In this document: positions 3,438 through 57,400 of the stretch, in pieces | How positions within the stretch are numbered: the first letter of the stretch is position 1 | Layout: every line of letters starts with the position of its first letter | Source: Straminergon stramineum | Taxonomy: Eukaryota > Streptophyta > Bryopsida > Hypnales > Calliergonaceae | Length of the DNA: 64,000 nucleotides | Assembly (NCBI GenBank): GCA_963920665.1 | Contig: OY987271.1 | Span: forward strand, 7,629,350-7,693,349 | Direction: 5' to 3' | Program-made: the position numbers and the translations under genes | Notes under the pieces: model-generated | What the model saw: the letters and a program-made list of their open reading frames with translations, nothing else | Databases searched by the model: none | What the model was told of the DNA's origin: nothing

Positions 3438-4373
3438 GTAACTCCTAAAGTTCCTTGACTATGTTATCACCAAAAACTCTCAAAAATTGCCATTTCTAAT
3501 AGAAGTAACAAATTTTTGAAAAATGTCATTTTTAGATACATGTAATCGTAGGATCTTGTAGTAAGCTATATTGAGAAGATGTAGAAAATTTTCAGAAATT
3601 TCCACCATGTAAATCGCAAGATATTACATTTGAAGTGACAAAAATCATTTTTTTGGCCTTAAGAATAATTGGCCAATTGCACTTCACAAGGTCACATTTG
3701 TATGAAAAAATGTCTAAAATGGATGTGCCTCTTTAGATTCATTCTTCAAGGTAAATTGGCTATATGCTTGAAAATTTTCAGATCATTTGGAATTGTGCAA
3801 CATATAGGAAAAAAATAGTAAGTAGAAAAAAATAGAGAATGATTCAAAATACTAAAATGTTAACAATTTATTAATGGAATTGAAAAATGTCAATCCCAAT
3901 GGTTGTAATGTTGTAATAAAAAATCTACACCTAATTTATTTTTTAAAAATTTTCCCAAAATATTGAAAATTGAGTTAAATAAAGGACTTCAAAGTTTATT
4001 CTAAAGTAGAGAATCGATAATTGCCCGCAAACTAAATCATCTCATAACTTTTGACTCCTTCATCAAAGTGAAATGAATCAAAGCTTTCTATGTCTATAGA
4101 AATTTAGAAAACCAATTTCAAAATTTTATTTTTTGAAAAAGTGATTTTTTCAAATCTACCTGGACTATCCAAGTTGAGAAACAAACTACATATTAGGTCA
4201 TAACTTTTGACTCATATTTCAAAATGTCTTGAAATTTAGTGCATATGAAAGATATTCCTCATCCGCACCTTCCATTAAAGTTTGGACCCAAAACATAGAA
4301 ATCTCTAGCCACACATACATGCCCAAAATTTCTATATTGCTAAAAAACAAAGTTTGGTCCTTTAGGGGTTTAA
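3438..4373 (+). mobile_element. TTAA element A, family 1 (non-autonomous, ~0.94 kb)
   Basis: The left end is a degraded TTAA (GTAA, 3438-3441) followed by CTCCTAAAGTTCCTTGAC. The right end is TTTGGTCCTTTAGGGG followed by TTAA (4370-4373). The interior is alignable along its length with copies at 6187-7119 (inverted), 13147-14660, 31791-32742 and 47136-48048 (inverted). TTAA plus CCC-starting ends resemble piggyBac-type elements. No transposase frame is present. This copy keeps the unoccupied site TTTATTAATGG (3868-3878), which is occupied in the copy at 13147. Confidence 0.75.
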
Positions 4374-6186
4374 AGTACTTTTAAATCTTTGTGAAGGTCC
4401 TCAGGAGCCAAAGGAAGGCTTTTCAGATCAAAAGAGACATTTTTTGGTGCCAAAAGGACTCTCTCTTATTTTTTTTGGTGTTAGTTTTTCTTTGTTAAGG
4501 TCTTTTGATGCCATGCCTGGAAACCTCCTTTGGTGCTTAAAGAATCTCTTGAAAGTTTTTTGGTTGTCCTTAGAAAGATTCTTGGTTCTATGTGAAGGGC
4601 TCTAGATACCATAGGAGGGTCTTTTGAAGTCTAATAACCTATCCCTAGTGCCAAGGGACCTTTCATCAAAGGAATTTGGGGGCTCATTTGAAGAATTTTT
4701 AATTCTTTGTGAAGGGCTCAAGGTGCAAGGGAGGATCCTAGGGCCCCTTTGTTGGTGCCACCTATGCTACTTGCAAAGCATATATAGTTTGGATATTAAT
4801 TTAAGCACCGTTTGTACTTTTTTAAGTACTAAGTTCAATAGAATCAAAATTCTTGCTTTCTTTTGTATTTAAGCTTCATCTTAGTATTTCAACTACTCTT
4901 GTTCTTATTTAGGAATGTTTTCACCCCATGAATAGTCATTCATTTCCAAGTAATGAAAAATTAGTCCAAGTGTAGGACTTTAAGCACAGTCTATGTAGAC
5001 CATGTTTCTACTAGTGATTATTTAATCAACCAATGTCTATGATTTTTATGAGGATAATATGGAAGACACAAATGTTTTAATGGAAGCTCAATGAAAAATG
5101 AGAAAAATATAGGAAGAAGTATGAAAAAAAATTCAAAGGCATGTACAAAAGAGCTAGAGGAAGTACTAGGTTGCATCATGTAACCTTGTTGCATAGGTAT
5201 GCTACGTCCTCAAGGAGTCAAGGATCCTTTAATCTTTATTTCTTCTCTAAAAAAATAGCTTTTTTTAATGAAGAAATTATTCTATCCTTCATCTTTTTAT
5301 ATTCTTTGGAAAAGATTACTTGAATGCTACATTTTTATGTGAAGTAAATTTTATTCATTCTTATTGGTGGCTTAACTTGTAAGGTCCCAAAGGCTTGTTT
5401 TCATCAAGAAAACACAAAAAAAATTCATTTTTGTTTCAACTTTTCAAAAATGAATTCTATAAGTTATTTTTTCTAAAAAATGTTTTGATTCCATAAAAAA
5501 ACAAGATTGTCCATAATTTTCTCAATTTACACTAGTTTGAATAGAATTAATCCAAGCTTTACATTTTCACAAAAATAGAATCTTTGAGAAAGAAATTAAA
5601 AATTAAAAAATTCATCTTTTTGTGATTTTTTGGGTGCTACCCTTGGATTCCTTGAACTACATTTTAGACTTAGAGTGGCATAACTTTTGCTCTTAGGCAA
5701 TGATTGAAATAAGAATTATATTTCTAGAAAGCTTATGTGATTTTCTATCTTCAAAAAATGTTTTAGAAAATCATGATAAGAGTTGATGCCACACAAGCCT
5801 ATCCTAATTCTCAAGGACTTTGGGACTAACGTGGGTACACCTAAAAGTGTCAAAAGTTGGGCTGTGGTTAATTTGAAGGTGAAGTAGTTAGTAATGAATA
5901 CAAGGAAGCAAAGAGATTTGTAGAAAATGAAGAAATGTAAAATCAATTTTTTGATTTTGGCAAATTTTAGATTACAATAGGGGGCCAAAGTTTTGGAAGT
6001 AGAGTGTTTAAAAGAGCTCATAAGCAGCCTTCAAAGTGAGCAATCACATTCAAAAGCTCCCCGTCCCAAGGTGTTAGAAGCAAAAGAGATGGAGTTGAAA
6101 TCAAATGGTTAATGCTCCAAAAACATATGCAAGCTCATTAACCAACTAGGTACGGAAAGGCTTGTTCAAATAAATAAATAAGCTAG
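4374..6186. other. Intergenic; repeat remnants, no gene seen
   Basis: From 4380 to 4760 there are worn GGCTCCTTGG-type units. From 4760 to 6186 the DNA is AT-rich and carries only short chance frames without recognisable products. Confidence 0.5.
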
Positions 6187-7119
6187 TTAACCCCTAAAGG
6201 ACCAAGGTGTGTTTTTTGGCAACATAACTTTTCTGGGCAGGTACGTGTGACTAGAGATTTCCATGTTTTTGGCCCAAACTTTAATAGAAGGTGTGGATGA
6301 GGAATATCTTTCATGTGCACTAAATTTCAGGGCATTCGGAAATATGAGTCAAAAGTTATAGCCTAATATGTAGTTTGTTTCTCAACTCGGGCAGTCTGGG
6401 CAGATCTGAAAAAATCATTTTTTTCAAAAATAAAAATTTAAAATTGGTTTTCTAGATTTATATATGCATAGAAAGCTTTGAATCATTCCATTTTGATCAA
6501 TGAGTCAAAAGTTATGAGATGTTTTAGTTTGCGGGCAAGTATGGATTCTCTACTCTAAAATAAACTTTGAAGACCGTTATTTAACTCAATTTTCAATATT
6601 TTTTGAAAAAAATAAAATCATTAGATGTAGATTGTTTATAACAACATTCCAACCCTTGGGATTGGGATTTTTCAATTTCATTAATAAATTGTTAACAATT
6701 TCGTATTTTGAATCATTCTCTACATCTTTCTACTTACTATTTTTTTCCTATATGTTGCACAATTCCAAATGATCTGAAAATTTTCAAGCATGTAGCCAAC
6801 TTGCCTTGAAGAATGGATCCAAAGAAGCACCACCGTTTTGGACATTTTTTCATACAAATGTGACCTTGTGAAGTGCAGCTGCCCGTTTTTTCACAGGGCT
6901 CAAAAAATGATTTTTGTCACTTCAAATGCTAATATCTTGCAATCTACGTGGTGGAATTTTCTGAAATTTTTTCCACACCTTCTCAATCTAGTTTACTACA
7001 AGATCATACGGTTACATGTGTCCAAAAACTATATTTTTCAAAAATTTGGTACTTGTATTAGAAATGGCAGTTTTTGAGGGTTTTTGGTGATAACATAGTC
7101 AAGGAACTTTAGGGGTTAA
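6187..7119 (-). mobile_element. TTAA element B, family 1 (intact ends)
   Basis: Both flanks are exact TTAA (6187-6190 and 7116-7119). The left end reads CCCCTAAAGGACCAAGG; the right end is the reverse complement of CCCCTAAAGTTCCTTGAC. Inside these nearly identical 9-bp termini the two ends diverge, as in the sister copies. It lies in the opposite orientation to element A. At 933 bp with both TTAA, it is the best-preserved simple copy of family 1 here. Confidence 0.82.
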
Positions 7120-7914
7120 CCAACCAGAAATGAGTGCGTGTTAGAGATTTAAAGCATTGATTCATTTGAGCTTTGAAGCTTAGCACATGTACCAAAAGCA
7201 TCAATCCTTCTTTGAAGAACCACTCACAAGGGGCCTTGAAAATTTTCAATATGTGATGAAGCCATTTGGGGGCTTATTTTAGACTGTGCTTTAAAGTACA
7301 ACATGATTTTGGGAGTACCCACTGTATAGGACTTTAGGGGTCAATGCATATGATTGAGGTTCTATGCACAATGTAAAAAATTCTATATTTTTAGCTCATA
7401 GATAGTAATTGGAACATGTGTGCATTGAATCTATTTCTTTCAAGTTTCAATTAGCAATGTGTTGGTCTATCTAATGGCAAAATGTAATTAGAACTCATAA
7501 ATATTGGTGTTAGCATAGGAATAAATTTATCAACCTTAGACCTTAGTAATGCTTGAAGGAAATTATAATCTTTCATTGGAAACAATACCTTCCTTGAAAT
7601 GGTTTTATAATGCCATATAAATACAAGTCTCTAGTTTCCAAAAATCTATCTATCGTCACTTTAAGGTACTTGGACATCAACCCTTATCTTAAACAACTAA
7701 GTTTTTAGTCCCATTCAATAGTCATCCATCATGTAATGCAATGAACAATATATTTATTTCATCCAACAAAGTCAACTACAAAAAATTCATTCATATCCGT
7801 TCATTCCCATTCATCCTCTTTAGATTCATTTATAGCCATATCTTTTTACAGAACCACAAATATAGACATCATTCATATGTTGAGAAGTTTTAAATTTTCC
7901 ACAAGTTTTTCTAA

Positions 7915-7980
7915 AAGCGCTCATCATTCATTGTTCAATGCATAATGTTTGTTGCTCCCTACTCATACTTTAGCAATGTT
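7915..7980 (+). repeat. Dispersed repeat X, copy 2 (empty-site reference)
   Basis: The segment TTGCTCCCTACTCATACTTTAGCAA runs uninterrupted across the position at which copy 1 (895-953) is split by the solo LTR. It is useful only as the pre-insertion allele; no function is apparent. Confidence 0.55.
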
Positions 7981-12453: not shown

Positions 12454-13019
12454 TTAACTACTAAATGCCCAAGGCACCAAATTTTGGTGTCAACAAAACT
12501 TTGAAGTTAAATAAAACCTTATATAGTAACTATTTTTAATAGTTTATATGTTTGAAAAATTCTTTTTGAAGTCTAATTTTATCATCAAAAATTTGATTTT
12601 GAAAATGAATGATCATGATTTTTCTATAGAAGATTTTGTGCAAGGGTGTCCATTGCATATCTTGATTTTCTAGTGTTGAAGGCTCTTGGAAATGAGCCTC
12701 AAATACACTAGAACTTGGAGAAAAAATCACATTAGAAATTCATTTAAAAAAATTGTAAACTAGATTTTGAGAAGCCATAAATTGATTGGGGTTATGCATG
12801 TTAGATCCTTTAACCTCATATTTCTTTGGTGACCAAATTTTTAGTTTCAACATGTGAAGAGAGGATTGAAGGACCTCAAATCACTTTTGCAATTTTAACA
12901 CCCTCATGATCAAACATTATAATCTTTCAATCTACAAGTGATATTATTGTGTTTTCTTTTCCCATGTGATCTCTAACTCCAAGAAGCTCAATAAAGGCCT
13001 TGGGCATTTAGGGGTTTAA
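12454..13019 (+). mobile_element. TTAA element G, family 3 (short form)
   Basis: TTAA at 12454-12457, then CTACTAAATGCCCAAGGC. The right end is GCCTTGGGCATTTAGGGG, then (T)TTAA at 13016-13019. It shares its interior with the element at 32739-34786 (ACCAAATTTTGGTGT near the left end, AACCTCATATTT toward the right end) but lacks that copy's 1.4-kb insertion. It is 566 bp with no coding content. Confidence 0.75.
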
Positions 13020-13146: not shown

Positions 13147-14660
13147 TTAACCCATAAAGTTCCTTGACTATCTTATCACCAAAAACTCTCAAAAACTTGC
13201 CATTTCTAATACAATTACCAAATTTTTGAAATATCATTTCTGGGCTCATATAACCATAGGAACTTGTAGTACACTGGATTGAGAAAATGTGGAAAAAATT
13301 TCAGAAAATTCCACCACGTAGATTGCAAGATATTAGCATTTGAAGTGACAAAAATCCTTATTTGGGCCCTATGGAAACCCGGGTAGCTACACTTCCCAAG
13401 GTCACATTTGTATGAAAAGATGTCCAAAATAGTGGTGCTTCTTTAGATTCATTCTTCAAGGCAAGTTGTCTAAAATCTTGAAAAATTTCAGATCATTTGG
13501 AATAGTGCAACATATACAAAAAAAATAGTAAGTAGAAAGATGTAGAGAATGATTCAAAATACTAAATTGTTAACAATTTATTAACCCCTAAAGTCCCAAT
13601 GTTCCTATGGGGGACAAAATAGATTTCGGGTAGGTTCCTATGAGCTCAATTTTTAGTGAATTTTTTTGAAACTTTCTTGCAAGATAGAAAAACTTATTAA
13701 CTTTTTGGGAATATAAGTTTTATTCCAATCGGAGCTCGGGAGTAAAAGTTATGCCACAATAACCTCAAAATGGGGGAGAGCGGGCAGCAAAAACATTTGT
13801 AAAAAATTGAAATATTTTTTTAAATTATTTTATTCTCATATATTATATTTCTGTCTAAATGGGAAGCTTTGAATCATCCCATTTGGATAAGTGATGTAAA
13901 AGATATAGAGTTTCTTGTTTTGTGGGCAATTGGAGCATCTTCAAAAAAAACTTTTTCTTTCACTTTGAATGCTAATATCTTTCAATCTGTAAGGTCAAAC
14001 ATCATGAAATTTTCATTACATGATCCAAGAAAAGTTTGGTGCAAGATCCTACGGTTAGATTCTAAAAAAAGTATTTTTTTTTCTGATTTCTTAGATGAAT
14101 GCAATAGAAGTAGTAGTTTTGAGTGGTTTTTGACTGAAAAATGGCCTTGGAACTTTAGGGGTTAATGGAATTGAAAAATGCCAATCCCAATGGTTGTAGT
14201 GTTGTTATAATCAATGTACACCTTCTTTCTTTCTTTTTTTTTCCAAAATAATGAAAATTGAGTTAAATAAAGGACTTCAAAGTTTACTTTAGAGTAGAAA
14301 ATCCATACTTGCCCGCAAACTAAAACATCTCATAACTTTTGAGTCATTGATCAAAATGCAATGATTCAAATCTTTCTATGTATATATGAATCTAGAAAAT
14401 CCATCTCAAATTTTTATTTTTGAAAAATGTGATTTTTTCCGATCTACCCGGACTACCCAAGTTGAGAAACAAACTACATATTAGACTATAACTTTTGACT
14501 CATATTTTCAAATGTCTTGAAATTTAGTGTACATGAAAGATATTCCTCGTCCACACCTTCTATTAAAGTTTGGAACAAAAATATGGAAATCTCTAGTCAC
14601 ATATACCTGCCCAAAATTTCTATGTTGCCAAAAAATGCACCTTGGTCTTTTAAGGGTTAA
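13147..14660 (+). mobile_element. TTAA element C, family 1, carrying a nested element
   Basis: TTAA at 13147-13150 precedes CCCATAAAGTTCCTTGAC. The right end CTTGGTCTTTTAAGGG is followed by TTAA (14657-14660). Outside the insert at 13581-14165 the sequence follows family 1 copies throughout. Its right edge lies about 570 bp upstream of the DDB1 start codon, so it bounds or enters the DDB1 promoter. Confidence 0.82.
13581..14165 (+). mobile_element. TTAA element D, family 2, nested in element C
   Basis: It is flanked by TTAA on both sides (13581-13584 and 14162-14165). Ends are CCCCTAAAGTCCCAATG and the reverse complement of CCCCTAAAGTTCCAAGG, a 15-bp terminal inverted repeat with one mismatch. 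Removing it and one TTAA rebuilds TTTATTAATGGAATTG, which is exactly the uninterrupted text of element A at 3868-3883. The interior differs from family 1 on the left. On the right (about 13955-14090) it resembles the subterminal part of family 1. No functional protein is seen. Confidence 0.88.
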
Positions 14661-15231: not shown

Positions 15232-18200
15232 ATGAGTAGCTGGAATTATGTTGTTACGGCTCACAAGCCTACTAATGTGACGCACTCCTGCGTCGGGTAC
15301 TTCACCAATCCGCAGGAGCTTAATCTCATCATCGCGTATCCTTTTCTAGCGAAAGTCTTTGGCTCGTTTTCCTTTTTCCTTGTAAATTGCCACGGGTTTA
15401 TTACAACTTGATGGTTGTGCGTATTCTATTTTTTTCGATTGTATTAAGCTGAAACAATAAGTGATGTTGGAGAGTGAGTATGACGCAAAATGCTGGCTCT
15501 TATGAAAGTTTGGGAATTGTTTTAGACGGCAGATTTAGGTTAACGATGTGGACGTGTGTGTCCTGATCATGAAGGCAAATAAGCTGCTTACAGTATTATT
15601 AAGTTAGCAACACAATTATCCTGCTTAGGAATTTTAATGTCTCCAGCGTGCGTTTTTTTGAAATACAGGTACTTATTTCCTGGTCTCCTAGAAGACTCTA
15701 ACTGTCTTGTGATTTCGGAGCTTGCCACAAGACTGACGTTCAATGATCGCATCTCGGACTTGAAATTTCCGTGTATAATGTCAAGATAACGAGAGGCTGT
15801 CAATTATGTCATGGTTCGTCGTATGAAGTGTCGTATCAATTTGGACAGTTCGTTTTCTTTTGTTGACGTTGATTGTGAGCGGAAAACCTAGAGGGACTAC
15901 ACGTTGAGAAAACATTTTTTCTTCGCCGTATCAGCAATTAGGTTTCGAATCAGATGAGTTATGGCAATTGAACTAGGTGTGAACACTGAGATGCTACTTT
16001 CAGTGTTAATAGACACTTTCAGAACTGCACGCCATTGACACAGTTATGCCGATTACGCATCATTTGTCTGTGAGGTCTTTGACTTTCATCTCAGAAAATG
16101 CACGAGAATCGAGATTCACCTGCTGACAGCATCAGGGCTCCAGGTATGGAACCTTTTAGGATCATGAATACTCTGAATTGTATCTGAACCTTGCAGAGCT
16201 ATCCATTTTCCTGAGATTGTGTTATCCCATAGCAATTATTGCAGATTAACTAGTATATTTCTGCCTATCAGTGTGCTTTTCAGACGAATGGAAACAAACG
16301 ACTGCTCTAGTACACCTTACGAATAGAGGCACTCCTGTTTATTTACGATGTAGTCTTAAGTTTATTTTGTATAGCAATTTGCTGCTTAATACGTGTACTT
16401 CTGGTAATTATGTTGTAATTTGTGATTGTGCAATTTAGACTTTCAAGTGGAGCACTGTCTTACTTCCTTTTAATTTTTATGAGATTGGATTAGTGAGCCT
16501 TTCGCATACATGCAGACACCTAGTTCAAACAGGGCTGGGGCATTTCCTCTATTCTATAGTGTTGGGATCTTATTGTATAATTTACCAGTTGTATGCGACA
16601 TCAAAAGCATCTAATATATTTTCTTTTTCAATTGCAGCCTATGCTCGATGTACCAATCTACGGCCGAATCGCCACACTCGAGCTTTTCCGCCCTCCTGTA
16701 AGTCATTGAAACTTACAACTCGTTCTGATAGTTTGGGGCTACTAGTGTGGGCTGTGTTAGTGTAGTGCACATGTAAGTAACCTCTTAAAACTGTAGCTCT
16801 CTTGTTGAGTGCAAGCGCTCTCGTTAGCGAGCCATTCAGTCTGCCACTCGGAACTTAATATGATATTTTATTCGTGTCGATAAGTAAGTATCCCTGAGCA
16901 CGTGAAGAAGTATTGATATTTTGTGTGCTTTGGTTGCAGGGGGAGTCACAGGACGTACTATTCATATCGTTTGAGAGATATAAATTTTGTGTTCTTCAAT
17001 GGGATGCAGAAACAAGCTCACTCATTACACGGTAAAATAGACTTTTCACGACGGTTTCACCTAAATCATTTGGGCGAAATCTATGGGGTGTCGTTTATTC
17101 TTGGCAGTGGAACTTAGTACGGATGATTTGGTGGAATGCAGAGCAATGGGAGATGTGTCTGATCGAATTGGTCGACCCACTGATAATGGACAGGTGTGTA
17201 CTTCAGGGAGTTGAAATTTATTATTATGTCAAGATGTGTATGTTTAACCCTTGAACGACCAGCATTGTTTCTGATATTTGAACGTCCATCTTATTCTCTT
17301 TTATATCTTCTAATACAATAATATCAGTTTAGACATACTTCCACCATGTTAAGGTGATACTCTACCGCTGAGTTATATCCCTCCCTAAAAAAATCTTGTT
17401 AATTAGCATAAATCTCACAGGTCAAATTACTAAAAGCTACTATTTATTGTCTTTGAGCAACTTAAAACCAGGTTATTTAATACCATCACGATTTCAATTA
17501 CGGAAATAGTAGAAAAGATCTCATTTTATTGTCAACTGGGTATAGTTCACACCAAAGTGAGGCCACAAATGTAAAATTCTCTCCAATTGAATGGATGATT
17601 GTATTTTCCCATTGGTTCGAAATAGATCGTATAAAAATTGATGTTATAGCTTATTTTTAAATTTCTTGTTTTTGAATGACAAGATGACTAGAAAATAATT
17701 TGTTTGAACGACAGACACAAATTAAATTTTTTGAATAACCATGATAATCGAATAATCGAAGAAAATTTTATAGATTTGTGGATGGTCAAAGTTTTGTTGA
17801 CTTCTACTACATTTCAAATTTGAAACACTAATATCTCACTTGATATTGATCATTTTTAATGATTCAGAGTTTTAATTAATCTAGGGAAAAAATAAATATA
17901 GGTCTTAGTTTATCACAAAAGCATTTGACATCGATAGCTTTTCAAATAATTGTTTTTTTTGACTCCATATGGCCGGAAAGGTCACTTTGGTCGTTTAAGG
18001 TTGAGGCATTGTCTCATTTTGAAGATCTTCTTAAGAAAAATAAGCGTACAATGCTTCCTCATTCGTGATTATCTAAGTCAAGTACAATCCCAGGGCTTAG
18101 AGTTATCCTACGTGCGAATATCCGTTCGAATTTTAATACTAGATTGTCTGAACTTTGTCCTTTTCTCAGATTGGCATCGTTGATCCCGACTGCCGCCTTA

Positions 18201-21200: not shown

Positions 21201-24200
21201 ACTTATACTCTTTATCAGATGTGAGCACGACAGATACATCCAAGGCATTTATGAGGTGTGTTTTACAGGCGTCTGCAGAGTTGCAAGGTATAAAGGGTAT
21301 GTGGTCACTGCGAGCATCATCGAGTGATGTCTTCGATACGTTCCTAGTAGTAAGTTTCATAAGTGAGACACGTATTTTGGCCATGAATGCTGACGACGAA
21401 CTTGAAGAAACTGAGATCGATGGCTTCGACTCTGAAGCTCAGACTCTCTTTTGTCATAATGCTGTCCACGACCAACTTGTACAGGTAAGAGCATGAGCTA
21501 TGCGTTAACATATGTTCTGCTAAGCCACTATCTAGGTGCTGCTGTGGTCTGATCCGTATGAGTGTAAGGGCCCCCCCTGTCCTATGCTTTGGATTGGTGT
21601 ATAACAAGTAGTAAAGTGTGATGTCATATTGCTTGAAAATTTGTTTTCTCATGTTATATCTCATTCAATTCCTTGCGAGTTTTTTCAACAAATCTTTCAT
21701 CCTACTTCCTGATCATCCAGCATTTTGACACAGGTCACAGCAGGCGCATTACGTCTCGTTGATGCAAAGACGAGGAGGCAACTGACAGAGTGGAAAGCCC
21801 CTGCACCAATTTCAATTAATGTTGCTACTGCAAATGCATCTCAGGTTTGCCCCGGGTTCTGTGATACCAGAGTCTTCCACTTTTTTCCTAAGCTAATAAT
21901 GATATTGTTAATTGGGTCAACTCGTCTTTCTTTTTCATTTATCAATTAGATTATCCATCGTTATGTTCACTGAACATTGGCAGCATTGAGATGTTTCATA
22001 ACGGTTTGTAATTATATGAATGTTATGGATGAACAGGTTCTACTTGCAACAGGAGGTGGAAATCTTGTATATATTGAGATAGGTCAAGGTACATTGGTGG
22101 AGGTGGCACACGTTCAGCTGGAGTATGAGATCTCTTGTTTGGATATCAATCCTGTGGGGGATAATCCTGAGCGCACCAACTTGGTTGCAGTGGGCATGTG
22201 GACAGACATCAGTGTCCGAATTTTCTCCTTGCCTTCTCTTTCCTTAATTACCAAAGAAATGCTGGGTGGAGAGATCATTCCTCGTTCTGTCCTCTTCTGC
22301 TCTTTCGATGGGGTGAGTTTCACCATCTGAAGCTAGTTCTGAATTTATTCTTATGGCAATTCAAGTTGCTCAAGGAATCATTTTAAACTTTCATACTGTG
22401 GTCATTCTTTCCATCCAACCTGAGGCAGATCCTTGCTTACAAGAATGCAATATTTGATCTCTGTTTTGGACAATTGTTCGGTTGTTAATTTGTGACACCG
22501 TTTAGGGTTTCAATTACTTTGCTTATCTGCATTTGGGTTCACAAGTGTCTGGGCTTTAGCTTGATTTAGGCTCCCCGTAAAACCAATCTAAATTTTCTTT
22601 TCTGATGTTTACATTCCTCATGTGCATGATCAGTTGCTTATCTAAGTTCTATGCTGTCTATTCAGATTGCGTACCTATTGTGTGCGTTGGGAGATGGTCA
22701 CCTCTTCAACTTCATGCTGAACCCCGTGACAGGAGAATTGTCTGATAGAAAGAAGATATCACTTGGCACGCAACCTATTGCATTACGTACCTTTCGATCC
22801 AAAAATGCCACCCATGTATTTGCAGCCTCAGATCGTCCAACAGTGATTTACAGCAGCAATAAGAAACTCTTGTACAGTAATGTCAATCTGAAGGAAGTCA
22901 ATCATATGTGCCCATTCAACTCTGCATCATTTCCAGACAGGTTCGTTTCTGACCTTCTAGCCAGTGCATCGTCGAAATGTTCAGCTCAGGATTTGTCGGA
23001 CAGATTTGGTTCATACATTCATACCGCTTCAGATTCTTGTCGCTGCGCCCATCTCCTTCAGAGTATCTTTGTGGAAATATTTTTAGGACTGTGTTAGTCG
23101 TATGTCGGTGGGTTACATTATTTGATGTGGTCTGCAGTCTTGCCATCGGGAAGGAAGGAGAGCTCACAATTGGTACTATAGATGATATTCAGAAGCTTCA
23201 CATTCGCACCGTTCCACTTGGTGAACACCCTCGCCGTATTGCTCACCAAGAACAATCTCGCACATTCGCCATTTGCTCTGCCAAGTATGCACCGACAGGT
23301 TCCAATGGTGAAGATATGGAAACTCATTATGTACGGTTGATTGACGACCAAACGTTTGATATAACATCTTGGTTTTCTCTCGATCCGTATGAAAATGGAT
23401 GCTCCATTATCACTTGTTCCTTCACTGATGACTTCAATGTGTACTATTGTGTGGGGACGGCCTATGCTCTTCCGGAAGAAAGCGAACCCAGCAAGGTACG
23501 CACTCTTTAGCTAACTATCCCACTTGTAATGTTCTTCGTCTGGTTTTGTTCTTGGGAAATCCACTTAATCTCAAGTCTGGCCTAGCAGTATTCAAGTGCT
23601 TTCTTCTTCACCTTACTTACCAATATATTCCGTTGCATCAGGGCCGTATACTAGTTTTTCTCGTGGAGGATGGCAAGCTCCAGCTGGTGGCAGAGAAGGA
23701 AGTGAAAGGGGCTGTGTATAATTTGAATGCTTTTAATGGCAAGTTGCTAGCAGGCATCAACCAGAAGATTGCTCTATACAAGTGGACATTGCGAGATGAT
23801 GGAACAAGGGAGCTGCAATATGAGTCCTCTCATCATGGTCATATCTTAGCCTTATATGTTCAATCACGAGGTGATTTTATCGTCGTGGGAGATTTGATGA
23901 AGTCAATTTCGCTTCTCATTTACAAGGTTTGTGCCACTACAGAATTGCGGATTATATCTGGTCAAAAACTATTTTACATTGTCCTTTGCTTTGGAATCGT
24001 CCTTTTCCTTTTTTTCATTGGATTACTGTATTTTGGAATCCTGAACCCTTCATATTCAGGAAGGCAATAAAAGAAAAATTTCCTGTCTTGTGTTTGACAG
24101 CCCGAAGAGGGTGCGATCGAGGAGAGGGCTCGAGACTACAATGCGAATTGGATGACAGCTGTCGAAATTTTGGACGACGACACATATTTGGGGGCAGAGA

Positions 24201-24682
24201 ACAGTTTCAATCTTTTCACTGTAAGAAAAAACAACGACGCGGCTACAGATGAAGAAAGAGGTCGATTGGAAGTCGTTGGTGAGTACCACCTTGGTGAGTT
24301 CGTGAACAGATTTCGACATGGGTCCCTGGTGATGCGACTGCCCGACAGTGAAGCCAGTCATATTCCAACCGTCATCTTCGGAACCGTGAATGGCGTCATA
24401 GGAGTCATCGCTTCCCTACCTCAGGAGCAATTCTTATTCCTGCAGAAGCTACAGCAGGCTTTGGTGAAGGTGATCAAAGGTGTGGGTGGATTAAGCCACG
24501 AACAGTGGCGCTCTTTCAGCAATGACCGCAAAACCGTGGACGCCCGTAACTTTTTAGATGGTGACTTAATCGAGTCTTTCTTGGATCTCAGTAGAAACAA
24601 GATGGAGGAAATCGCTGCTCCACTAGATGTTTCCGTTGAAGAGCTTTGCAAACGTGTAGAGGAACTTACTCGGCTACATTAA
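15232..24682 (+). CDS. DDB1: DNA damage-binding protein 1 (CUL4 E3 ligase adaptor)
   Basis: Exons: 15232-15335, 16095-16143, 16638-16697, 16940-17031, 17142-17193, 18170-18232, 18620-18669, 18837-18912, 19276-19485, 20075-20181, 20508-20616, 20829-21029, 21269-21484, 21734-21844, 22037-22312, 22666-22940, 23138-23495, 23642-23926 and 24101-24682. All introns are GT-AG. The joined frame is 3276 nt, 1091 aa, against about 1088-1090 in other plants, so the gene is complete. It opens [20 protein letters not shown] and ends [10 protein letters not shown], both characteristic. As established for the family, it folds as three beta-propellers plus a C-terminal helical part, holds CUL4-RBX1 through the middle propeller, and receives DCAF, DDB2 or DET1/COP10 substrate modules. 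It acts in the nucleus in DNA repair and in light and hormone signalling. Conserved blocks include [18 protein letters not shown] and [12 protein letters not shown]. Intron 5 (976 bp, the longest) holds a TTAA element. Confidence 0.98.
17244..18004. mobile_element. TTAA-type element Q inside DDB1 intron 5
   Basis: The left end is TTAACCCTTGAACGACCA (17244-17261). The right end is TGGTCGTTTAAGGTTGA, the reverse complement of TCAACCTTAAACGACCA. The ends match over about 16 bases with one gap, and one TTAA has changed to TTGA. It is 761 bp, AT-rich and non-coding. It accounts for most of this intron and lies between a normal donor (17194) and acceptor (18169). Confidence 0.65.
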
Positions 24683-30323: not shown

Positions 30324-30325
30324 TA

Positions 30326-30549
30326 AGGGAGGAGCACCCAATGGCGTCCCTATACCCAATGGCGTCCTTTTCTAGGTCAATCAAGAATTCATTTTAGAAC
30401 ATAAATGTAGCTGGACTGTAGACAACTTATCATTTTAGGTCCAAAAAAATAAGCTCTCTATTGTCTACTTACATTTATAGCCTGAAATGATTATGCTCTG
30501 TAGAATTGGACGCCATTGGGTACAGGGACGCCATTGGGTACTCCTCCCT
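30326..30549. mobile_element. Stowaway-like (Tc1/mariner) MITE, 224 bp
   Basis: TA (30324-30325), then AGGGAGGAGCACCCAATGGC. The other end is the reverse complement of AGGGAGGAGTACCCAATGGC, followed by TA (30550-30551). The terminal repeat is about 42 bp with two mismatches and itself contains CCCAATGGCGTCC twice. The inner parts also pair, so the whole element can fold back. TA duplication and AGGGAGG ends suit Stowaway-type elements. A second member is at 59805-60181. Confidence 0.8.
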
Positions 30550-30718
30550 TACACATTCACGGAATCATCAACTGATGGGACGTGCACAAATTAATGCATT
30601 CTATATAGGGCAATGATCCAGGAGGACGGGATTTCGAGGGGAAAAAAACAAAAAAAACATGTCAATGAGGAAGGCAAAACTTGACGAGGAGGCATTTTTT
30701 TTTGCAAAATCCCTGACA

Positions 30719-31790: not shown

Positions 31791-32742
31791 TTAACCCCTA
31801 AAGGTATTTGACTACGTTTTCACCAAAAACGCTCCAAAACTGTCATCTCTAGTACAAGTACCAAATTTTAGAAAAAATACATTTTTGGACAAATGTAACC
31901 ATAGGATCTTGTAGTATACTAGTTCGGGAAGATGTGGAAAAAATTTCAGAAATTTCCACCGTTTGGATTGCAAGATATTAGCATTTGAAGTGACAAAAAG
32001 CCATTTTTTGGCCATGCAAAAATCCAGGCAGCTGCACTTCACAAGGTCAGATCATTATGAAAAAATGTCCAAAATGGTTGTAACTCTTTGGATTCACTCT
32101 CCAAGTCATGTTGGCTACATGCTTGAAAAAATTTAGATCATTTGGAATTATACAACATATAGGAAAAAAATAGTAAGTTGAAAGAAGTAGAGAATGATTC
32201 AAAATACTAACTTGTTAATAATTTATTTATGGAATTGAAAAATGCCAATCCCAATGGTTAAATTGTTGTAATAAAAAATCTACACCTCAACTTTTTATTT
32301 TTTTCCAAAACTATTAAAAATTGAGTTAAATAAAGGTCATCAAAGTTTATTTTAGAGTAGAGATTCCATTACTACCCACAAACTACCCACAACTAAAACT
32401 CTTCATAACTTTCATTTCATAAATCAAAATGGAATGATTCAAAGCTTTCCATGTATATATAAATCAGGAAAATAAATTTCAAATTTTTATTTAAAAAAAA
32501 GTGATTTTTAAAGAAGTTTTTTGCTGCCCGGGCTGCCTGCTAAGCAATGAAAACAACATATCATACAATAACTTTTTAACCATGTATTCAAAAGTTATGA
32601 AAATTGTTGGGTCTTAAAGCTACTCCTTGGGCACATGTTTTGGGAAAAATTTCAAAGAAAAAAAAATAAAAATTCCATTTGTAGTGAGCTACCCGAAATC
32701 GCTATGTTGCCAAAAAACATTGTTTGGTCCTTTAGGGGTTAA
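31791..32742 (+). mobile_element. TTAA element E, family 1
   Basis: TTAA at 31791-31794 then CCCCTAAAGG. The right end TTTGGTCCTTTAGGGG abuts TTAA at 32739-32742, which is also the left TTAA of the next element. Its interior follows copies A, B, C and I. There is no internal insertion and no transposase. Confidence 0.82.
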
Positions 32743-33065
32743 CCCCTAAATGCCCAAGGCACCAAATTTTGGTGTTTCAAAAACTTTGAAGTTAAATAAA
32801 ATCCAACCAAATTGCTATTATTATTATTTTATATTTTTGGAGAACTCTTTTTGAAGTCTAGTTTTAGGATCAAAAAGCCGATCTTAAAAAAGAATGATTA
32901 TGATTTTTCTATTCAAGATTTTGTGCAAGGATGTCCATTGCAATCTTGACTTCCTGTAGTGTTGAAGGCTCTTGGAAATGAGCCTCAAATGCACTAGATC
33001 TTGGAGGAAAAATCACATTAGAAATTCATTTTAAAAAAATTGTAGAATACATTTTGAAAAAACGT

Positions 33066-34463
33066 TGTCGTATTGTAAATGTGTTCATTATGTGAAAATG
33101 CATAATTGTTTGTTAAATTGGAGGGGTTTTTTTTTGTAGAGTTTCAAGAAACAAATGGGGTTATACTCCACTTGAACTCTTTTTTTTTACCTCTATTTGA
33201 CAAACACTTAGTTCTTTGATTTCTATACTAGAAGATATTTTAATATGTTAGTTAATTAGGTTGAAGTTGTAAAAACAAAAAGTAAAGCTTGTTTTACCTT
33301 TTTCCTTATTTTTATTTTATTTTTAATGGATTAGAAATCCATGTAGATGATATGGATAGACTTATCGAGAATAGGAAGTGGCCCATGTGGGTATTATGGC
33401 CCATGTGACATCTTAGTGGCCAAAATCCATTAATTTAAGTGGATGGCATGGAGGTTGAGGTGGCGGATGAGGTTAAGGATCATCTTCTTCCTCCTCCTTG
33501 TTTTGCTTAAGGAAGCCGTCACTTTGGGAGGAGATAACACTTTGTATATGGAGAGTTTGGTAATGAATTTTTGAGAGCTTGTGTATCTTGTTTTTTTGTT
33601 TCCAAAAAGCTATCACTCATGAAGTTTGGAGTTAGTATGTGTAAGTTATGAATTTAGGAGTGAAGTCTTGTGAAGCTGCCTCAAACTTTCAAGAGAGTGA
33701 GCTTTGAAAGGGTATGAAATGTGGACAGTACTTTGTATTTGAGTGAAACTTGGGAAGCTTGTAGATGTTCATGTTAACTTTCCAAATTGGGTTCATTTTC
33801 TTGATTTGGAGGTAGTATGTGAAAGTTACGGGCTTGAGAGTGAAAGGGTGAAGGGATACTTTCGGGTTTCAAGTGAGTGAGCTTTGAAAAGGTATGAAAT
33901 GTGGACAGTACTTTGTATTTGAGTGAAACTTGGGAAGCTTGTAGATGTTCATGTTAACTTTTCAAAATGAGTTTATTTTCTTGATTTGGAGGTAGTATGT
34001 GAAAGTTATGAGTTTGAGAGTGAAGTATAGGTGAGCTGCCTTTGAGTTGGGAAGGGTGAACTTTGACCGACCATAAAAGTCGGATAGTATCTTAGTTTTG
34101 AGTGAATTTTGGAGAGGTTGTAGAACTTTTTGTTAGCTTTCCAGAGGCATATCACACTCTTAGTTTGGAGTTGTATAGCGAACGTGGCACTCAATCAACT
34201 ATCAAACACTTCTTCGAGGGTAGTTCATGAAGGATATGACTTTGTTTCCACAATTTTTTACCATGCATGGGGTATATTGAGACTCCATGACATCTTTGGA
34301 GGGGTGTATGGAAGGATGATAGTATTTTGGTTCATATGGCATCATTGGGGGGATTTATTGTTATGTTTGTGACTTTGGCCACGGGATCTTTCATTATTTG
34401 AACCACGTCTAGTTGCACCTAGAAGCCCCGCGTTTTCCCAAGGCAAGGCCTCTCTACTCGACA
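33066..34463. mobile_element. Probable solo LTR nested in element F
   Basis: The segment starts TGTCGTATTG and ends CTACTCGACA (TG...CA with TGTCG/CGACA inverted termini), flanked by ACGT on both sides (33062-33065 and 34464-34467). It is absent from sister element G. The interior carries tandem blocks with AAGTTATG motifs and no coding frame. The 4-bp duplication is short but within the range for LTR elements. The call rests on ends, duplication and the gap against G. Confidence 0.65.
33540..34200 (+). repeat. ~180-bp tandem repeat inside the nested LTR
   Basis: The whole 60-base stretch 33721-33780 recurs exactly at 33901-33960. A third, diverged unit starts near 34081 (GAGTGAATTTTGGAGAGGTTG), with a weaker one before 33720. 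The period is exactly 180. Confidence 0.8.
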
Positions 34464-34786
34464 ACGTAAATTGATTGGGGTTGTGCATACTAAGCCCTAT
34501 AACCTCATATTTTTTTAGTGACCAACTTTTTAGAGTTGACATGCAAAAAGAGAAATGAATAATTTTCATACTTTTAACACCCTCATGATCAAACATTATA
34601 ATCTTTCAATCCGTAAGTGATATTGTTATGTTTTCTTTTCCTATGTGATCTCTAACATGTCTAGTTTTAATTTGTATGGTTACAATTCAAAAGAAATTGG
34701 TATAACTGATGAAAATGTTGACTTTTTGTTCAATTTAGAGCAAATTTCAAGAAGCTCCAAACAAGCCTTGGGCATTTAGGGGTTAA

Positions 34787-35387: not shown

Positions 35388-35996
35388 TTAACCCTTAAAG
35401 GATGGATTGGTGATCGTGGAAATCCTTCCTTTTGGACTCATGTGACATCATCTACTTTAAAAAAATAAAAAAATTTCATTAGAAGTCATACTAATGTAGA
35501 AGACCTACCCTTTTCTAACAAAATTCCAAAGATGAATAGTCATAGTTCTATCCTACATGGAGAGATTTTGTCATCCATCAGCCACAAAACATCAGCTTTG
35601 ACATTTAACCCCTAAATGACGTAGCGAATGTTTTTTCTCCAATGAACGACAAGTAATTCTCCTCTCTAGGACAGAATTGCAACTATTCATCCTCAGAATT
35701 AGGGGTGGAAAGGGTAGATCTTCTACATTAGTTTGACTCCCAATGGGTTTTTTTTATTTTCTTAAAGTGGATGATATCACATTAGTTTGACTCCCAATGG
35801 GTATTTTTTATTTTCTTAAAGTGGATGATGTCACATTAGTTTGACTCCCAATGGGTATTTTTTATTTTCTTAAAGTGGATGATGTCACATTAGTTTGACT
35901 CCCAATGGGTATTTTTTATTTTCTTAAAGTGGATGATGTCACATGGTTCCAAAATCGCTGATTTCCATGGTCACCAGCCCAGCATTCAAGGGTTAA
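35388..35996. mobile_element. TTAA foldback element J with ~200-bp arms
   Basis: TTAACCCTTAAAGGATGG (35388) and the reverse complement of TTAACCCTTGAATGCTGG (ending 35996) are the termini; about 37 bases match with seven mismatches. The pairing continues inward (CATGTGACATCATC, CTAATGTAGAAGA, GATGAATAGT) to a centre at about 35605, TTTAACCCCTAAAT, which itself looks like an element end. A second GGGTTAA follows directly at 35997-36003. It contains no protein. Confidence 0.75.
35727..35942 (+). repeat. 54-bp tandem array, four copies, in right arm of J
   Basis: ATTAGTTTGACTCCCAATGG starts at 35727, 35781, 35835 and 35889, a strict 54-base period with almost no divergence. The unit is part of the foldback arm, because the left arm holds one inverted single copy. 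It therefore expanded after the element formed. Confidence 0.9.
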
Positions 35997-44173: not shown

Positions 44174-44783
44174 TTAACTCCTAAAGGACTAGGGGTGTTT
44201 GAGTAAAGCTCTTGTTTTCTTGACTAGCTCTTGTAACAAGCACAATTTCTCAAATGTGTGGAATAGTATTGATGATCACCACTATTGGAACGAAAGAAGA
44301 GTTGTGTAGCTTTCCTATGAAAAAAATATCAATAAAATTGTACAATTTTTGGGAAAATAACACCGTTGACAAAATTGATTAAAGATATCCAATTTGGTGG
44401 AACTTTGTACATGCACTAAAATTGGAATGTTGCAATTGGAATGCTCAAAAGTCATCCACAAACTCTGATTTTTTTTCCTACATCCACATATGATCATGAT
44501 TTGTATGTGTAATTTTTTTTTAAATTATTTTGAGTTGTGGAAAAAAATATATGAGCATGTGAAGTGATAACACAAAGTGCCTTTCCTATGCTCAAAAAAT
44601 TCACCAAAAACTACTCACTCAATCATTTCTCAATCGGATTGTACGTATGGATTCAACAAAATAAGTCATCTAGGGTCTCTTTGTTGTTCATGGACTAAGT
44701 TATTAGTGAGGTTCACATTTTGATTTTTTTACAAATGTAGTTGTAGAAGCCATGTGATGGCCTTATGGTCATTTAGGGGTTAA
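44174..44783. mobile_element. TTAA element M
   Basis: TTAA (44174-44177), then CTCCTAAAGGACTAGG. The right end CCTTATGGTCATTTAGGGG is followed by TTAA (44780-44783). Termini match at CYCCTAAAkGACy. It is 610 bp, the interior is unlike families 1-3, and there is no coding content. Confidence 0.72.
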
Positions 44784-47135: not shown

Positions 47136-48048
47136 TTAACCCTTAAAGGACCATCATGGGTTTTTTAACTTCATAGCAATTTTAGGCAAGCACGTGTGAT
47201 TGGAGATTTCTAAAATTTTTGCCCAAATTTTAAGAAAAGGTGGGGATGAGGAATGTCCTTCATATGCACTAAATTTCATGACATTTGAAAACATGAGTCA
47301 AAAGTTATGGCCTAATATGTTACTTTTTTTTGTAAATGGGTAGTCCGGGAAAATTAGAAAAAAATTACTTTTTCATAAACAAAAATTTGAAATTGATTTT
47401 CTAAAGAGAGATAGATATGTGGAAAGCTTTGAATCATTCCATTTTGATCATTGAGTCAAAAATTACAAGGATTTTTTATTTGCAAGCAGTTATGGATTCT
47501 CTACTCTAAAATAAACTTTAAAGTCCTTTATCATACTCAATTTTCAATATTTTTTGAAAAAATAAAATCTTAGGATGTAGATTGTTTATTACAACATTGC
47601 AACCATTGGGATTGGCATTTTTCAATTCCATAATCAAATTCTTAACAATTTAGTATTTTGAATCATTCTCTACTATTGCCTACTTACTATTGTTTTCCTA
47701 TATGTTGTACAATTCCAAATGACCTGAAATTTTTTGAGCATGTGGAAAACTTGTCTAGGAAAAAGTTTCCAAAGAAGCACCACAATTTTGGACGTTTTTT
47801 CATAGAAAAGTGAGCTTGTGAAGTGTAGCTGCCTTGTTTTTTGCAAGGCCCAAAAAATGATTTCAATGAATTTGAATGTTTATATCTTGCAATTCACATA
47901 GTGGAAATTTCTGAAATTTTTTTCACATCTTTTTAAACTAGTGTAATACAAGATTCTATGGCTACATGTGCCATTTGGTATTTGTACTAAAAATGGCAAT
48001 TTTGGAGCTTTTTTAGTGAAAACATAGATATGGAACTTTAGGGGTTAA
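47136..48048 (-). mobile_element. TTAA element I, family 1
   Basis: TTAA at 47136-47139 then CCCTTAAAGGACCATCATGG. The right end TGGAACTTTAGGGG is followed by TTAA at 48045-48048. Same orientation as element B; 913 bp; alignable along its whole length to A, B, C and E, with scattered substitutions and small gaps. Confidence 0.8.
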
Positions 48049-52434: not shown

Positions 52435-52520
52435 AACCATACTTAGGATCAATCACAAAGTATCTTTTTAGAGAGCTTGTGAAAACTACCTATCTCAATA
52501 ATTTGTGAAAAGTACATAAA

Positions 52521-54418: not shown

Positions 54419-57400
54419 CTATCTCTCCAGCAAGCTAATCTCAGTCGGAGATTTGGGAATATTTACACATCCGCTGAAGTATATGGTTCAGAGATAAAAT
54501 GTTCAAAACTTGTAGATAGGGACAGTTTAAGTCGGCTTATAGACCCTTACCTAAATTTGGGGAATTGCAGCACATCAGCGTTGCGTATTGCAAGCTCATG
54601 CCAGAGCCTCTCTTCCAGTCCCCTCGGACCCAAACGCTTCACCGCACTGATAGTCAGATCGTCTGAGATTGCTGGAGAGACAGCCGAACTGCTTTCCCTC
54701 GAGTCAGTGCTGAATTCCAACAATATACCTGCGATAACATAATACTGTCATTGTTTCCTCTTGAAGTAGAAGCAATCAGTCAGAAGAAGAATTTCAAGGC
54801 AGACTCAGAATTCTCAATGTCAAAAGCAATCAAGAAATTCAGCACTGAGTTGCAGCTGAAGGATTTGCATCACAGTAAATACTCGGGAAATAAGATGCTA
54901 AGGTATGAAGGCAGCCCTTCCTCACTCTTGGCTATACCAACTTCACTCATAATGATTAACCCCAAAGGGCCAAGGATTCTTGGTTTCAGAAGGCAAAGTT
55001 GATTGATCATATTGTGTAAAACATAATTCAGATGGGGTCGAAATTTATATCATCTCAATCAGTAAAGAACATTACATCTGTTGGTAAATAAATAAATAAA
55101 TTTGGACAAAAGAAAATTCACATGTGACTTACTGAAAATTTCTAAAAAAACATGAAGATTGCATGCGACATATACAGAACAGGAATGGCAGTTTCTGTAT
55201 ACGCAAACCTCAAGATCTAGAGCAGAACGGCTATAAAGAATTCTCTTAATTTCCTTAGGTTCATGCATGGCAATAGATGCTATTTATGCGATAAAACCAT
55301 ATTTCGGTTCGTCGGCAGTTCGAGGGTGATGGATAAAGTTGCAAGGACTCAGGCAATGATTTCATGTTCCTCCTCAATGCCCAGAAGGGCTTCTCATGTC
55401 ACAAGACAAAGTTAGTGTTACATAATAATAATTTTAGTAAATTCATAAACCTGGGACCCTTACCAAAATTTTGCTATACATCTAATGGAGTTGTTCAATC
55501 ACAAGAATCAACAAAATAAAATCAAACGCATGCGCATGTTTGAAAAATAAAATGTTCAAAAAATTTGGAATGTCCATAGATTCATGAGGTTTTGTGCAAT
55601 TACGCATTCAAAGGGTGACAGTCACGTGTTTTCTATGTGATGTCCGTGTCAGAAAGATCAGGTTCTTATCAAATGACTCCAATTAAGTAAATTTTGCTTA
55701 AATTCTATAAGATTTTAGGAAGTCATTAATACCTGAACTTTAATCAAATTAAAAAATATGCTTTTATTGTGCAGATAAGCCTTATAAATATGATTAAACT
55801 AAAAGTGTAATAATAAACTGAAGTCAATTGACGAAAACCTAAATTTTCAACTTGATTTTGGTGTACCCTATAAATTCCAAAAGAAGATTTTGTAAAAATA
55901 TGGGGAAAAAAAGAGTGAAAATGACATTCGAAAATGAGAGAAAATGAGGAAAAATATAATGAATGAATACTTACCAGGCGTCCTGAAAGGGCTAGGCATG
56001 ACAAGAGTGGGTGTAACATCGTCACTTTCAGTGGGCACCGTCTCTCCAGGGTCACAAGTTCTAAGAGGCGAGACACCGAACCCCGGAGTTTGCAGAGAAA
56101 ATAATCCATCGTCTCCATTGGTAACTTGCGCCAGAGAGGTCTCAAACACCAAGCGAGACTGACAGGGAGAAGGTTCAGGAGTCCAAATATCTTCGGCTCC
56201 GGGTGCCAGTTGACCATCACAAACTGTAGTAAATGCAACGAGAGGCGATGGACTTTCGCTAATAGTAGAAAGGACTCTGGTCGAACGGGGTGGTGATTGC
56301 ATGCAAGGTGTTTGGGGTAGTGGACTGATAGATGTGCTTCTACGTGTGCCACCTGTCCAGTCTCGAGGGGGACTGCATGTGAGGGGTTCACTACCATTGG
56401 GGCTCTCACAATCTAACAGATCAGTGGAAACGAGTGGGGAATAGCTGATGGCACCAAACTCTAAATCAGTGATTAGTGGACTGCCACTGCCACATTTGCA
56501 TCCACTAGGAGGTGTTGTTTCATGACTTCCTGTGGTAGACGGCTCTTGATCAAGGTTTCTAAGCAACGAAGATGATCGCTCAGCAGCTGCCCTGAGGAAG
56601 ATATTCAAGTCCTGAAAGAGAATAATAAAAACTTCAGTTTCCTGAGTGGTCAGGTCAACAGTAGGAAATTGTTGAGATTTCAAACAAGATACCTTCGATT
56701 AACCCGTAAATGACCAAGGATTCATGGTTTGCATGAAAGATTTGTCTGATCATAATGGAATTTTTATTTTGTGATGGGACCAATTTTTATATCACCGGGA
56801 TCTAAAGTTGAAAGTTCCCATATGACCTACTCGAAACTGCTTAAAAGTCAATGAGATTTGGACCTGTTTATCTTGTTAGGGGTTAACATCGCAAATAAAT
56901 AGGCATATTCAATCCTGTCGTCACTGGGACGAAGAAACGCCGAACAACTTGAATTGACGAAATTGATGTCGTGTGAGCGTATTGATTGCAGCACCTACAC
57001 TTGGATGATTTTAAGAGAAATGCTGACCTGGAGGTTAGCATCAATGTTGGCCAAGGCATCGGCAAAAACCTGAACCTCGGCATCAGCAACAAGATTCGAT
57101 GACGCCAGCGCGTGAATATTCAACACCGTTGAGTCAATCTACATACGAAAACACTAATAAATCAGAAACAGACGTGGAGTACTAGCAACATGAAGGACGA
57201 GTACAAAAGTACAGTAGAACTCCAAGCTGACCAGTAAAGAAAATCGGCTACGCCAGTCCAAGCACTCCAGACGAGATGCGACTTCGTAGTTAGACTATCT
57301 GGAGACTACCAAAGAAGACACCGGACATAAATAATGACGAGAGCTATAATAACCTGACGTCACCTTAACATCAAGAAAAATTTTAATTTTTGCTTCGAGA

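What the first reader, a model, noticed from the sequence alone, without database searches (positions are those of the whole stretch)
3438..56886. A diverse set of TTAA-flanked, CCC-ended elements resembling piggyBac in a land plant
At least ten elements of about six interior types (3438, 6187, 12454, 13147, 13581, 31791, 32739, 35388, 44174, 47136, 56699, with a worn one at 17244) share ends TTAA-CCC(C/T)TAAA(G/T) and sit at TTAA. Strict TTAA targeting with CCC-type ends is the rule of the piggyBac superfamily, which to my knowledge is rarely described in land plants. None here encodes a transposase, so an autonomous partner must exist or have existed elsewhere in the genome.
Basis: partly seen in the sequence, partly recalled or inferred. 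Interest (0 to 1): 0.88.

Follow-up and report, generated by a model that had tools for sequence, protein, structure and literature searches.

The report
Moss genome full of piggyBac transposons
The repeated pieces in this stretch of a likely moss genome look like shortened relatives of piggyBac jumping genes, a type best known from animals, and longer relatives with the same ends elsewhere in the genome, some carrying a transposase reading frame without stops, likely moved them; this matters because a survey of small transposons in 207 plant genomes does not count piggyBac among the plant groups.

Summary
Ten two-ended elements with TTAACCC-type ends cover 14% of the window. One is inserted inside another exactly at a TTAA that two uninterrupted copies keep single, as expected if TTAA is duplicated. 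Seven of 30 transposase loci were extended; all seven are 4.5-6.4-kb elements with TTAA-CCCC at both ends, though five were chosen because one end was already visible. A pair 98.7% identical on two contigs matches both ends of the window's commonest type in register. The window elements are therefore internally deleted piggyBac derivatives (shown for type 1, likely for the rest). A flanking gene is closest to moss genes. Thirty transposase domains from this genome are diverse and lie apart from seven animal ones; four are near-identical, which points to recent movement. A 3' motif lies 162-169 bp from the end in the eight loci where it was found. piggyBac is a known superfamily; its abundance and diversity in a land plant appear new.

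The parts
3438..4372 (-). type-1 non-autonomous piggyBac-like element, 935 bp, worn ends (GTAA / TAAA)
   Evidence: both ends match the long element L016el in register
6187..7119 (+). type-1 element, 933 bp, perfect TTAACCCCTAAAG ends
   Evidence: positions 1-217 match L016el 1-216 at 80%, 555-933 match 6054-6431 at 69%
12454..13018 (+). type-2 element, 565 bp, inverted ends close to TTAACCCCTAAATGCCCAAGGC
   Evidence: ends; a 3' block shared with L034/L038, not at the same distance from the end
13147..14660 (-). type-1 element, 1514 bp because it is interrupted by 13581-14165
   Evidence: alignment without the insert; match to L016el
13581..14165 (+). 585-bp element nested in 13147-14660, with TTAA on both sides
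   Evidence: empty site in copies 3438 and 6187; 47-95 match L034 5' end 47-95 at 82%; 3' end matches L016el 6366-6431
31791..32742 (-). type-1 element, 952 bp
   Evidence: both ends match L016el
32739..34786 (+). type-2 element, 2048 bp, perfect 22-bp inverted ends; shares its left TTAA with 31791-32742; holds a 180-bp tandem duplication
   Evidence: no transposase domain in six frames
35388..35996 (.). element of 609 bp with about 110-119-bp inverted ends and a 54-bp tandem array inside
   Evidence: ends alone assign it
44174..44783 (.). element of 610 bp, ends TTAACTCCTAAAGGAC / TTAACCCCTAAATGAC
   Evidence: ends alone assign it
47136..48048 (+). type-1 element, 913 bp
   Evidence: both ends match L016el
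56699..56886 (.). possible 188-bp element, one good end and a weak partner

Best explanation
These are likely non-autonomous, internally deleted piggyBac-superfamily DNA transposons in a likely moss genome, and they were likely spread by cut-and-paste insertion into TTAA by piggyBac transposases encoded by longer elements of the same genome that carry the same ends. Shown: the ends, a TTAA at a nested insertion that is single in two empty-site copies, in-register homology of both ends of the five type-1 copies to a longer element that encodes PF13843, and near-identical transposase copies on three contigs. Inferred: that the transposase binds the shared terminal and subterminal stretches (the first 20 or so bases at both ends, a GGGTAGGT-type motif near position 48 at the 5' end, a CACCGYGYGGATTGAAAGATTATAAC-type motif about 165 bp from the 3' end), cuts the element out and joins it at a new TTAA as animal piggyBac does; that short copies spread because they keep both ends and little else; that the other types belong to the same system; and that some families moved recently.
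For: Ends far above chance. Nested insertion with two empty-site copies. Genome: 11,214 + 11,030 exact ends against 58 + 72 for the reversed pattern. PF13843: 118 matches, 116 of 473 candidates scored, best E 7.8e-79, 0 of 14 control genomes. Seven of seven extended loci are 4.5-6.4-kb elements with TTAA-CCCC at both ends: L034, L038, L030, L014, L023, L016, L019. All five type-1 window copies match L016el at both ends, in register, E down to 2.4e-51. The open 700-aa frame of L034 matches solved piggyBac transposase 6x67 at E 2.5e-30, with the motifs that hold the catalytic aspartates aligned, and PF13843 at 7e-73. 18 of 18 cores preceded by TTAA. L016el and L019el, on different contigs, are 98.7% identical over two long pieces.
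Against: No movement was observed. Types 35388, 44174 and 56699 are tied to piggyBac by their ends only, and type 2 by ends plus a short 3' block. Five of the seven extended loci were chosen because a TTAACCC end was already seen near them. Most of the 30 transposase loci examined carry stops: 6 had none inside the domain (L016, L018, L019, L029, L030, L034), and in one of these, L029, the second catalytic aspartate reads N. The C-terminal zinc finger of animal piggyBac was not recovered above cut-off. Type-1 copies are 75.5-89.3% identical, so these particular copies are not young.
Confidence: 0.95

Rival explanations
1. The elements belong to Kolobok, another superfamily that duplicates TTAA.
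For: TTAA at the nested insertion; Kolobok is TTAA-specific (PMC9587614, passages).
Against: Kolobok ends are described as 5'-RR..YY-3'; these are CC..GG, as stated for piggyBac (PMC10045372, passages). Full-length relatives with the same ends encode PF13843.
Confidence: 0.01
2. The elements are TA-duplicating (Tc1/mariner, Stowaway-like) or 3-bp-duplicating (PIF/Harbinger, Tourist-like) plant MITEs whose TTAA is only a preferred site.
For: The nested insertion alone cannot tell a TTAA duplication from a TA duplication with flanking T and A kept.
Against: A 3-bp repeat would leave unequal ends; 18 of 18 cores have the full TTAA; full-length relatives of type 1 encode piggyBac transposase.
Confidence: 0.01
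3. The transposase genes are unrelated insertions that happen to lie beside MITE ends, or contamination from an animal.
For: Only 7 of 30 loci were extended to both ends, five of them chosen because one end was visible.
Against: Seven of seven are bounded on both sides; two copies of one element share both boundaries on different contigs; matches lie on contigs C1 to C11; the 30 domains from this genome group apart from 7 named animal ones with 100/100 support.
Confidence: 0.02

Closest known systems
piggyBac superfamily of DNA transposons (DDE_Tnp_1_7, PF13843; solved example 6x67, the cabbage looper enzyme by recall)
   Same: TTAA target, CC..GG ends, PF13843 transposase with the three catalytic motifs aligned
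   Different: host is a likely moss; full-length elements seen are 4.5-6.4 kb; asymmetrical subterminal motifs, one 162-169 bp from the 3' end in the loci where it was found; C-terminal finger not recovered by Pfam
piggyBac-derived MITEs of animals (for example corals, PMC2872659, and Daphnia mPok, PMC4912750; seen only as search listings with the start of the abstract)
   Same: short copies without a transposase related to longer piggyBac elements
   Different: plant host; the elements here are mostly 0.6-2 kb and about six types lie in 64 kb
Kolobok superfamily (PMC9587614, passages)
   Same: TTAA duplication
   Different: RR..YY ends; the plant hosts named in the passage are green and red algae
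PiggyBac-labelled repeats of the fern Ceratopteris richardii (PMC6890710, one table passage)
   Same: a land plant with repeats labelled PiggyBac (1230 copies, 122,417 bp)
   Different: the passage seen is a table count; no structure, ends or transposase described in it

Membership tests
piggyBac superfamily | 4-bp TTAA target duplication | tested here: met
   nested insertion with empty sites; 18 of 18 cores after TTAA; 7 of 7 full-length elements; in the window 9 of 11 cores after TTAA, 2 after TAAA
piggyBac superfamily | termini 5'-CC..GG-3' | tested here: met
   criterion from PMC10045372
piggyBac superfamily | related elements encode a DDE_Tnp_1_7 (PF13843) transposase | tested here: met
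   118 matches; inside seven bounded elements. In-register link shown for type 1 and 13581; short or end-only for the other types
piggyBac superfamily | catalytic aspartates in the three motifs aligned to solved piggyBac | tested here: met
   (L034); kept in L030, L034 and L016, second one lost in L029. Residue roles recalled
piggyBac superfamily | C-terminal cysteine-rich zinc finger | tested here: inconclusive
   cysteines visible at the end of L034, L030, L016; only a sub-threshold Pfam hit for L034, DZR E 0.096
piggyBac superfamily | footprint-free excision | not testable with these tools
   needs an excision assay or polymorphic sites
Kolobok | 5'-RR..YY-3' termini | tested here: not met
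   ends are CC..GG
Sola (TTAA-inserting group) | Sola transposase | not tested
   its use of TTAA is recalled; a paper cited for Sola elements (PMC2727372) is not held. Type 1 has PF13843 within the same ends; the end-only types were not tested against Sola
PIF/Harbinger or Tc1/mariner MITE | TWA or TA duplication with superfamily-typical ends | tested here: not met
   full TTAA kept at 18 of 18 cores; transposase of the type-1 relatives is PF13843

The most novel reading that the evidence does not exclude
piggyBac is a native, long-resident and still mobile transposon superfamily of mosses: one moss genome holds over ten thousand copies in many deep lineages with intact, recently copied transposases, and its elements use a position-locked 3' subterminal signal about 165 bp from the end that has outlasted the divergence of the transposases.
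Probability: 0.4. Interest if true: 0.85.

Novelty: new member of a known kind. Interest (0 to 1): 0.72.

Why it matters
[quoted passage not shown] A survey sorting only into those groups would misfile or miss such elements (inference). Against this, a review lists PiggyBac among class II superfamilies in a sentence on plants (PMC10794571, passages) and one abstract says piggyBac has been isolated from insects, fungi and plants (PMC10813416, passages), neither with detail in what I saw. Animal piggyBac is used as an engineering tool in rice because it excises cleanly (PMC10905368, passages), and a 2017 paper says it had yet to be tested in the moss Physcomitrella (PMC5505980, passages); a native plant piggyBac would be a direct test subject and a possible source of cross-reaction. 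The moss set also makes the history of the superfamily in green plants testable.

Tried and rejected
Viral contigs were scanned for two end patterns: 5 and 0 hits. Five is about what chance would give for a 17-base word in a collection of that size (my rough estimate), and they were not used.

The orphan ends at 7344, 17244, 29678, 31283, 35605, 36003, 50153, 52434, 52521, 54956 and 56699 were tested for partners. Only 56699-56886 was kept, as possible.

A transposase remnant in 32739-34786 was sought in six frames: nothing but a chance-level hit to an unrelated domain.

Kolobok, Sola, PIF/Harbinger and Tc1/mariner were considered; see the rivals and the membership table. Rfam found nothing in the window at gathering thresholds.

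Named plant transposases: 9 of the 120 listed rows (158 found) and 18 of 72 carry an organism name by my reading, and all are animals. The same database returned named mosses for the host gene. Repeat masking before gene prediction, and the word-based search, may explain the absence.

In one search further core-like hits with two mismatches, not preceded by TTAA, were taken as chance because the sequence after them does not continue like an end; this choice favours TTAA and is why the 18 of 18 test matters more.

The share of ends preceded by TTAA over the whole genome could not be counted, because that search did not complete; the 18 of 18 comes from coordinates listed, compared by eye.

No structure prediction was run; sequence similarity to 6x67 settled the family.
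Full report
WHAT IS THERE. The end pattern TTAACCCYTAAAK occurs 25 times (up to one mismatch) in 64 kb against 0.71 expected from shuffles. Ten pairs of ends bound elements of 565 to 2048 bp that cover, with the doubtful one at 56699, 14.5% of the window. Five belong to one type (75.5-89.3% identical after the nested insert is left out), two to a second, and the rest stand alone. Some ends are worn: GTAA and TAAA at 3438-4372, TAAA at 13018.

TARGET SITE. Element 13581-14165 lies inside element 13147-14660 with TTAA on each side; the uninterrupted copies 3438-4372 and 6187-7119 have one TTAA at exactly that place. This alone does not exclude a TA duplication. Elements 31791-32742 and 32739-34786 abut and share one TTAA. 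On contig C1, 7 of 8 fetched ends had a partner end 644 to 954 bp away; two loci overlap and share a partner, so there are 6 distinct partners, 5 with TTAA and one with TAAA; the eighth locus had none within reach. Core-like hits with two mismatches that do not continue like an end were set aside in that count. In the window, 9 of 11 cores searched without TTAA follow TTAA and 2 follow TAAA; in loci L014-L048 both readable ones follow TTAA and a third lies at a locus edge. A genome search for the core CCCCTAAAGGACCAA without TTAA gave 2138 + 2056 hits and 0 + 0 for the reversed control. All 18 plus-strand hits that fall in the stretch of C1 also listed have TTAA directly before them (coordinates compared by eye).

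HOST. The gene at 61874-63119 (minus strand) encodes a dCTP pyrophosphatase. Its closest relatives are three unnamed records (97-100%), then Ceratodon purpureus (92%) and, over 74% of the query, Physcomitrium patens (92%). The window also holds frames matching CPSF_A at 23432-24682; they read as a DDB1 gene from memory. The host is therefore a likely moss. The window is part of an assembly of 326 Mb in 59 contigs.

GENOME-WIDE. The exact pattern occurs 22,244 times; the reversed control 130 times. If most elements have two exact ends, this is about 11,000 elements (inference). The density is 68 per Mb, against 234 per Mb in the window (15 exact ends), so the window is about three times richer than average.

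TRANSPOSASE. PF13843 gives 118 matches, from 116 of 473 candidates scored, so this is a lower bound; two loci contribute two matches each. The best E is 7.8e-79, all listed rows are over the curated cut-off, and 0 of 14 control genomes match. I took 30 loci. Seven were extended until both ends were visible: L034 (C4:15543625-15548289, 4665 bp), L038 (C4:7760867-7765333, 4467 bp), L030 (C4:21663045-21669457, 6413 bp), L014 (C2:2299996-2305120, 5125 bp), L023 (C6:2152470-2157593, 5124 bp), L016 (C3:43274771-43281201, 6431 bp) and L019 (C1:25328650-25334972, 6323 bp). The first five were chosen because one TTAACCC end was already visible within 1.5 kb, the last two because they are near-identical. 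All seven start and end with TTAA-CCCC. The other 23 loci were not extended; of these, L020, L026 and L033 show a TTAACCC end beside the 3' motif, and L041 an exact end 596 bases into the locus; for the rest I saw none that I trust within 1.5 kb. L034, L030 and L016 carry stop-to-stop frames of 700, 620 and 948 aa across the domain. L034 aligns to solved piggyBac transposase 6x67 (E 2.5e-30) and matches piggyBat 9c0f (1.5e-23), with TIDE, LDNYFTS and GVDVADQ opposite TIDE, CDNWFTS and GVDTLDQ of 6x67. The catalytic role of these aspartates is recalled.

LINK BETWEEN SHORT AND LONG ELEMENTS. All five type-1 copies match L016el at both ends in register. For 6187-7119, bases 1-217 match 1-216 (80%, E 2.4e-51) and 555-933 match 6054-6431 (69%, E 1.1e-36); the stretch between, apart from some 30 bases, has no match in L016el. 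Element 13581-14165 matches L034 at 47-95 in register (82%) and L038 near the 3' end (73%), and L016el at the last 66 bases. Element 32739-34786 of type 2 shares the terminal 20 bases (90%) with L014, L023 and L038 and a 22-24 base block at the 3' end with L034 and L038 nearly in register; 12454-13018 has the same block about 90 bases nearer its end. Neither type-2 element matches L016el. Types 35388 and 44174 share little beyond the ends, and 56699 was not compared. Type 1 is thus an internal deletion derivative that, in 6187-7119, kept about 220 bp of the 5' end and about 380 bp of the 3' end of an L016-like element.

SUBTERMINAL SIGNALS. At the 5' end a motif GGGTAGGTTCCTA lies at position 48 in L034 and 13581 and, with one change, at 49 in L038; 6187 and 31791 have it at 49 of the corresponding end with 4 and 3 changes. 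At the 3' end a motif close to CACCGYGYGGATTGAAAGATTATAAC was found in the downstream flank of 8 of 30 loci. In six (L020, L026, L030, L033, L034, L038), with 1 to 7 mismatches, it starts 162-169 bp from a TTAACCC end; in two (L014, L023) it has 9 mismatches, and the end position puts it 164 bp from the end. It was found in 0 of 30 upstream flanks and 0 of 60 single-base-shuffled 1500-base stretches of the window. In many of the 22 loci without it the 3' end may lie beyond the 1500 bases held, so absence there means little; L016 and its relatives carry a looser form that the search missed (alignment). That it is a transposase-binding site is inference.

AGE AND HISTORY. In a tree of 57 rows (30 loci of this genome and 27 of the 120 hits listed, 7 of them the named animals used), the 30 domains and 13 unnamed database rows lie on one side of a branch with 100/100 support, and the seven animal rows with 7 unnamed rows on the other. 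The 30 are spread over several deep branches, while L015, L016, L018 and L019, on three contigs, are nearly identical. L016el and L019el are 98.7% identical in two pieces of 3.6 and 3.0 kb. This fits long residence with recent movement of some families; the rooting is by midpoint, so direction of transfer is open. The unnamed relatives bear source labels jgi, lgn or ena and no organism.

COMPARISON WITH THE LITERATURE. Ten searches of the held library (two found nothing, and in six others only the top of the list was shown) gave no paper describing native piggyBac elements in a moss among the listed titles and abstract starts; the library holds only open-licence papers. Papers of which I saw passages only: PMC9587614 (Kolobok TTAA with RR..YY ends), PMC10045372 (piggyBac CC..GG ends), PMC12550479 and PMC10741241 (plant superfamilies without piggyBac), PMC9033089 (no occurrence of piggyBac), PMC6890710 (1230 PiggyBac-labelled repeats in a fern), PMC10794571 (lists PiggyBac among class II superfamilies in a sentence on plants), PMC10813416 (its summary says piggyBac has been isolated from insects, fungi and plants), PMC10905368, PMC5505980 and PMC10619864 (only the word piggybacking). 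So the label has been used for plants before; structure, targets and transposases as here were not found in what I could search.

VERDICT. The finding is right, and its test succeeded. It is a member of a known superfamily in a host and at an abundance that the plant surveys seen here do not expect.

Noticed in passing
window 333-3292 and 4389-4454: Degenerate 42-75 bp direct repeats around AAGGCTCCTTGAATCC...GAGCCCTTCCTTGGTGCC, many copies about 60-86% alike, on both sides of element 3438-4372. Nature unknown.
   Followed up: no
window 35671-35994: 54-bp unit repeated about four times at 98% identity inside element 35388-35996, whose inverted ends are about 110-119 bp long, unlike the other types.
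   Followed up: partly
window 33687-34024: 180-bp tandem duplication at 94% inside element 32739-34786.
   Followed up: no
L020, L026, L030, L033, L034, L038 3' ends: A motif near CACCGYGYGGATTGAAAGATTATAAC lies 162-169 bp from the TTAA at the 3' end only, in elements whose transposases are far apart in the tree.
   Followed up: partly
L029 transposase: A frame of 792 aa without stops has N in place of the second catalytic aspartate (INNYFTS); a dead or perhaps repurposed copy.
   Followed up: no
window 30324-30374 and 30501-30551: Inverted repeat of 51 bp at 92% around a GACGCCATTGGGTA unit.
   Followed up: no
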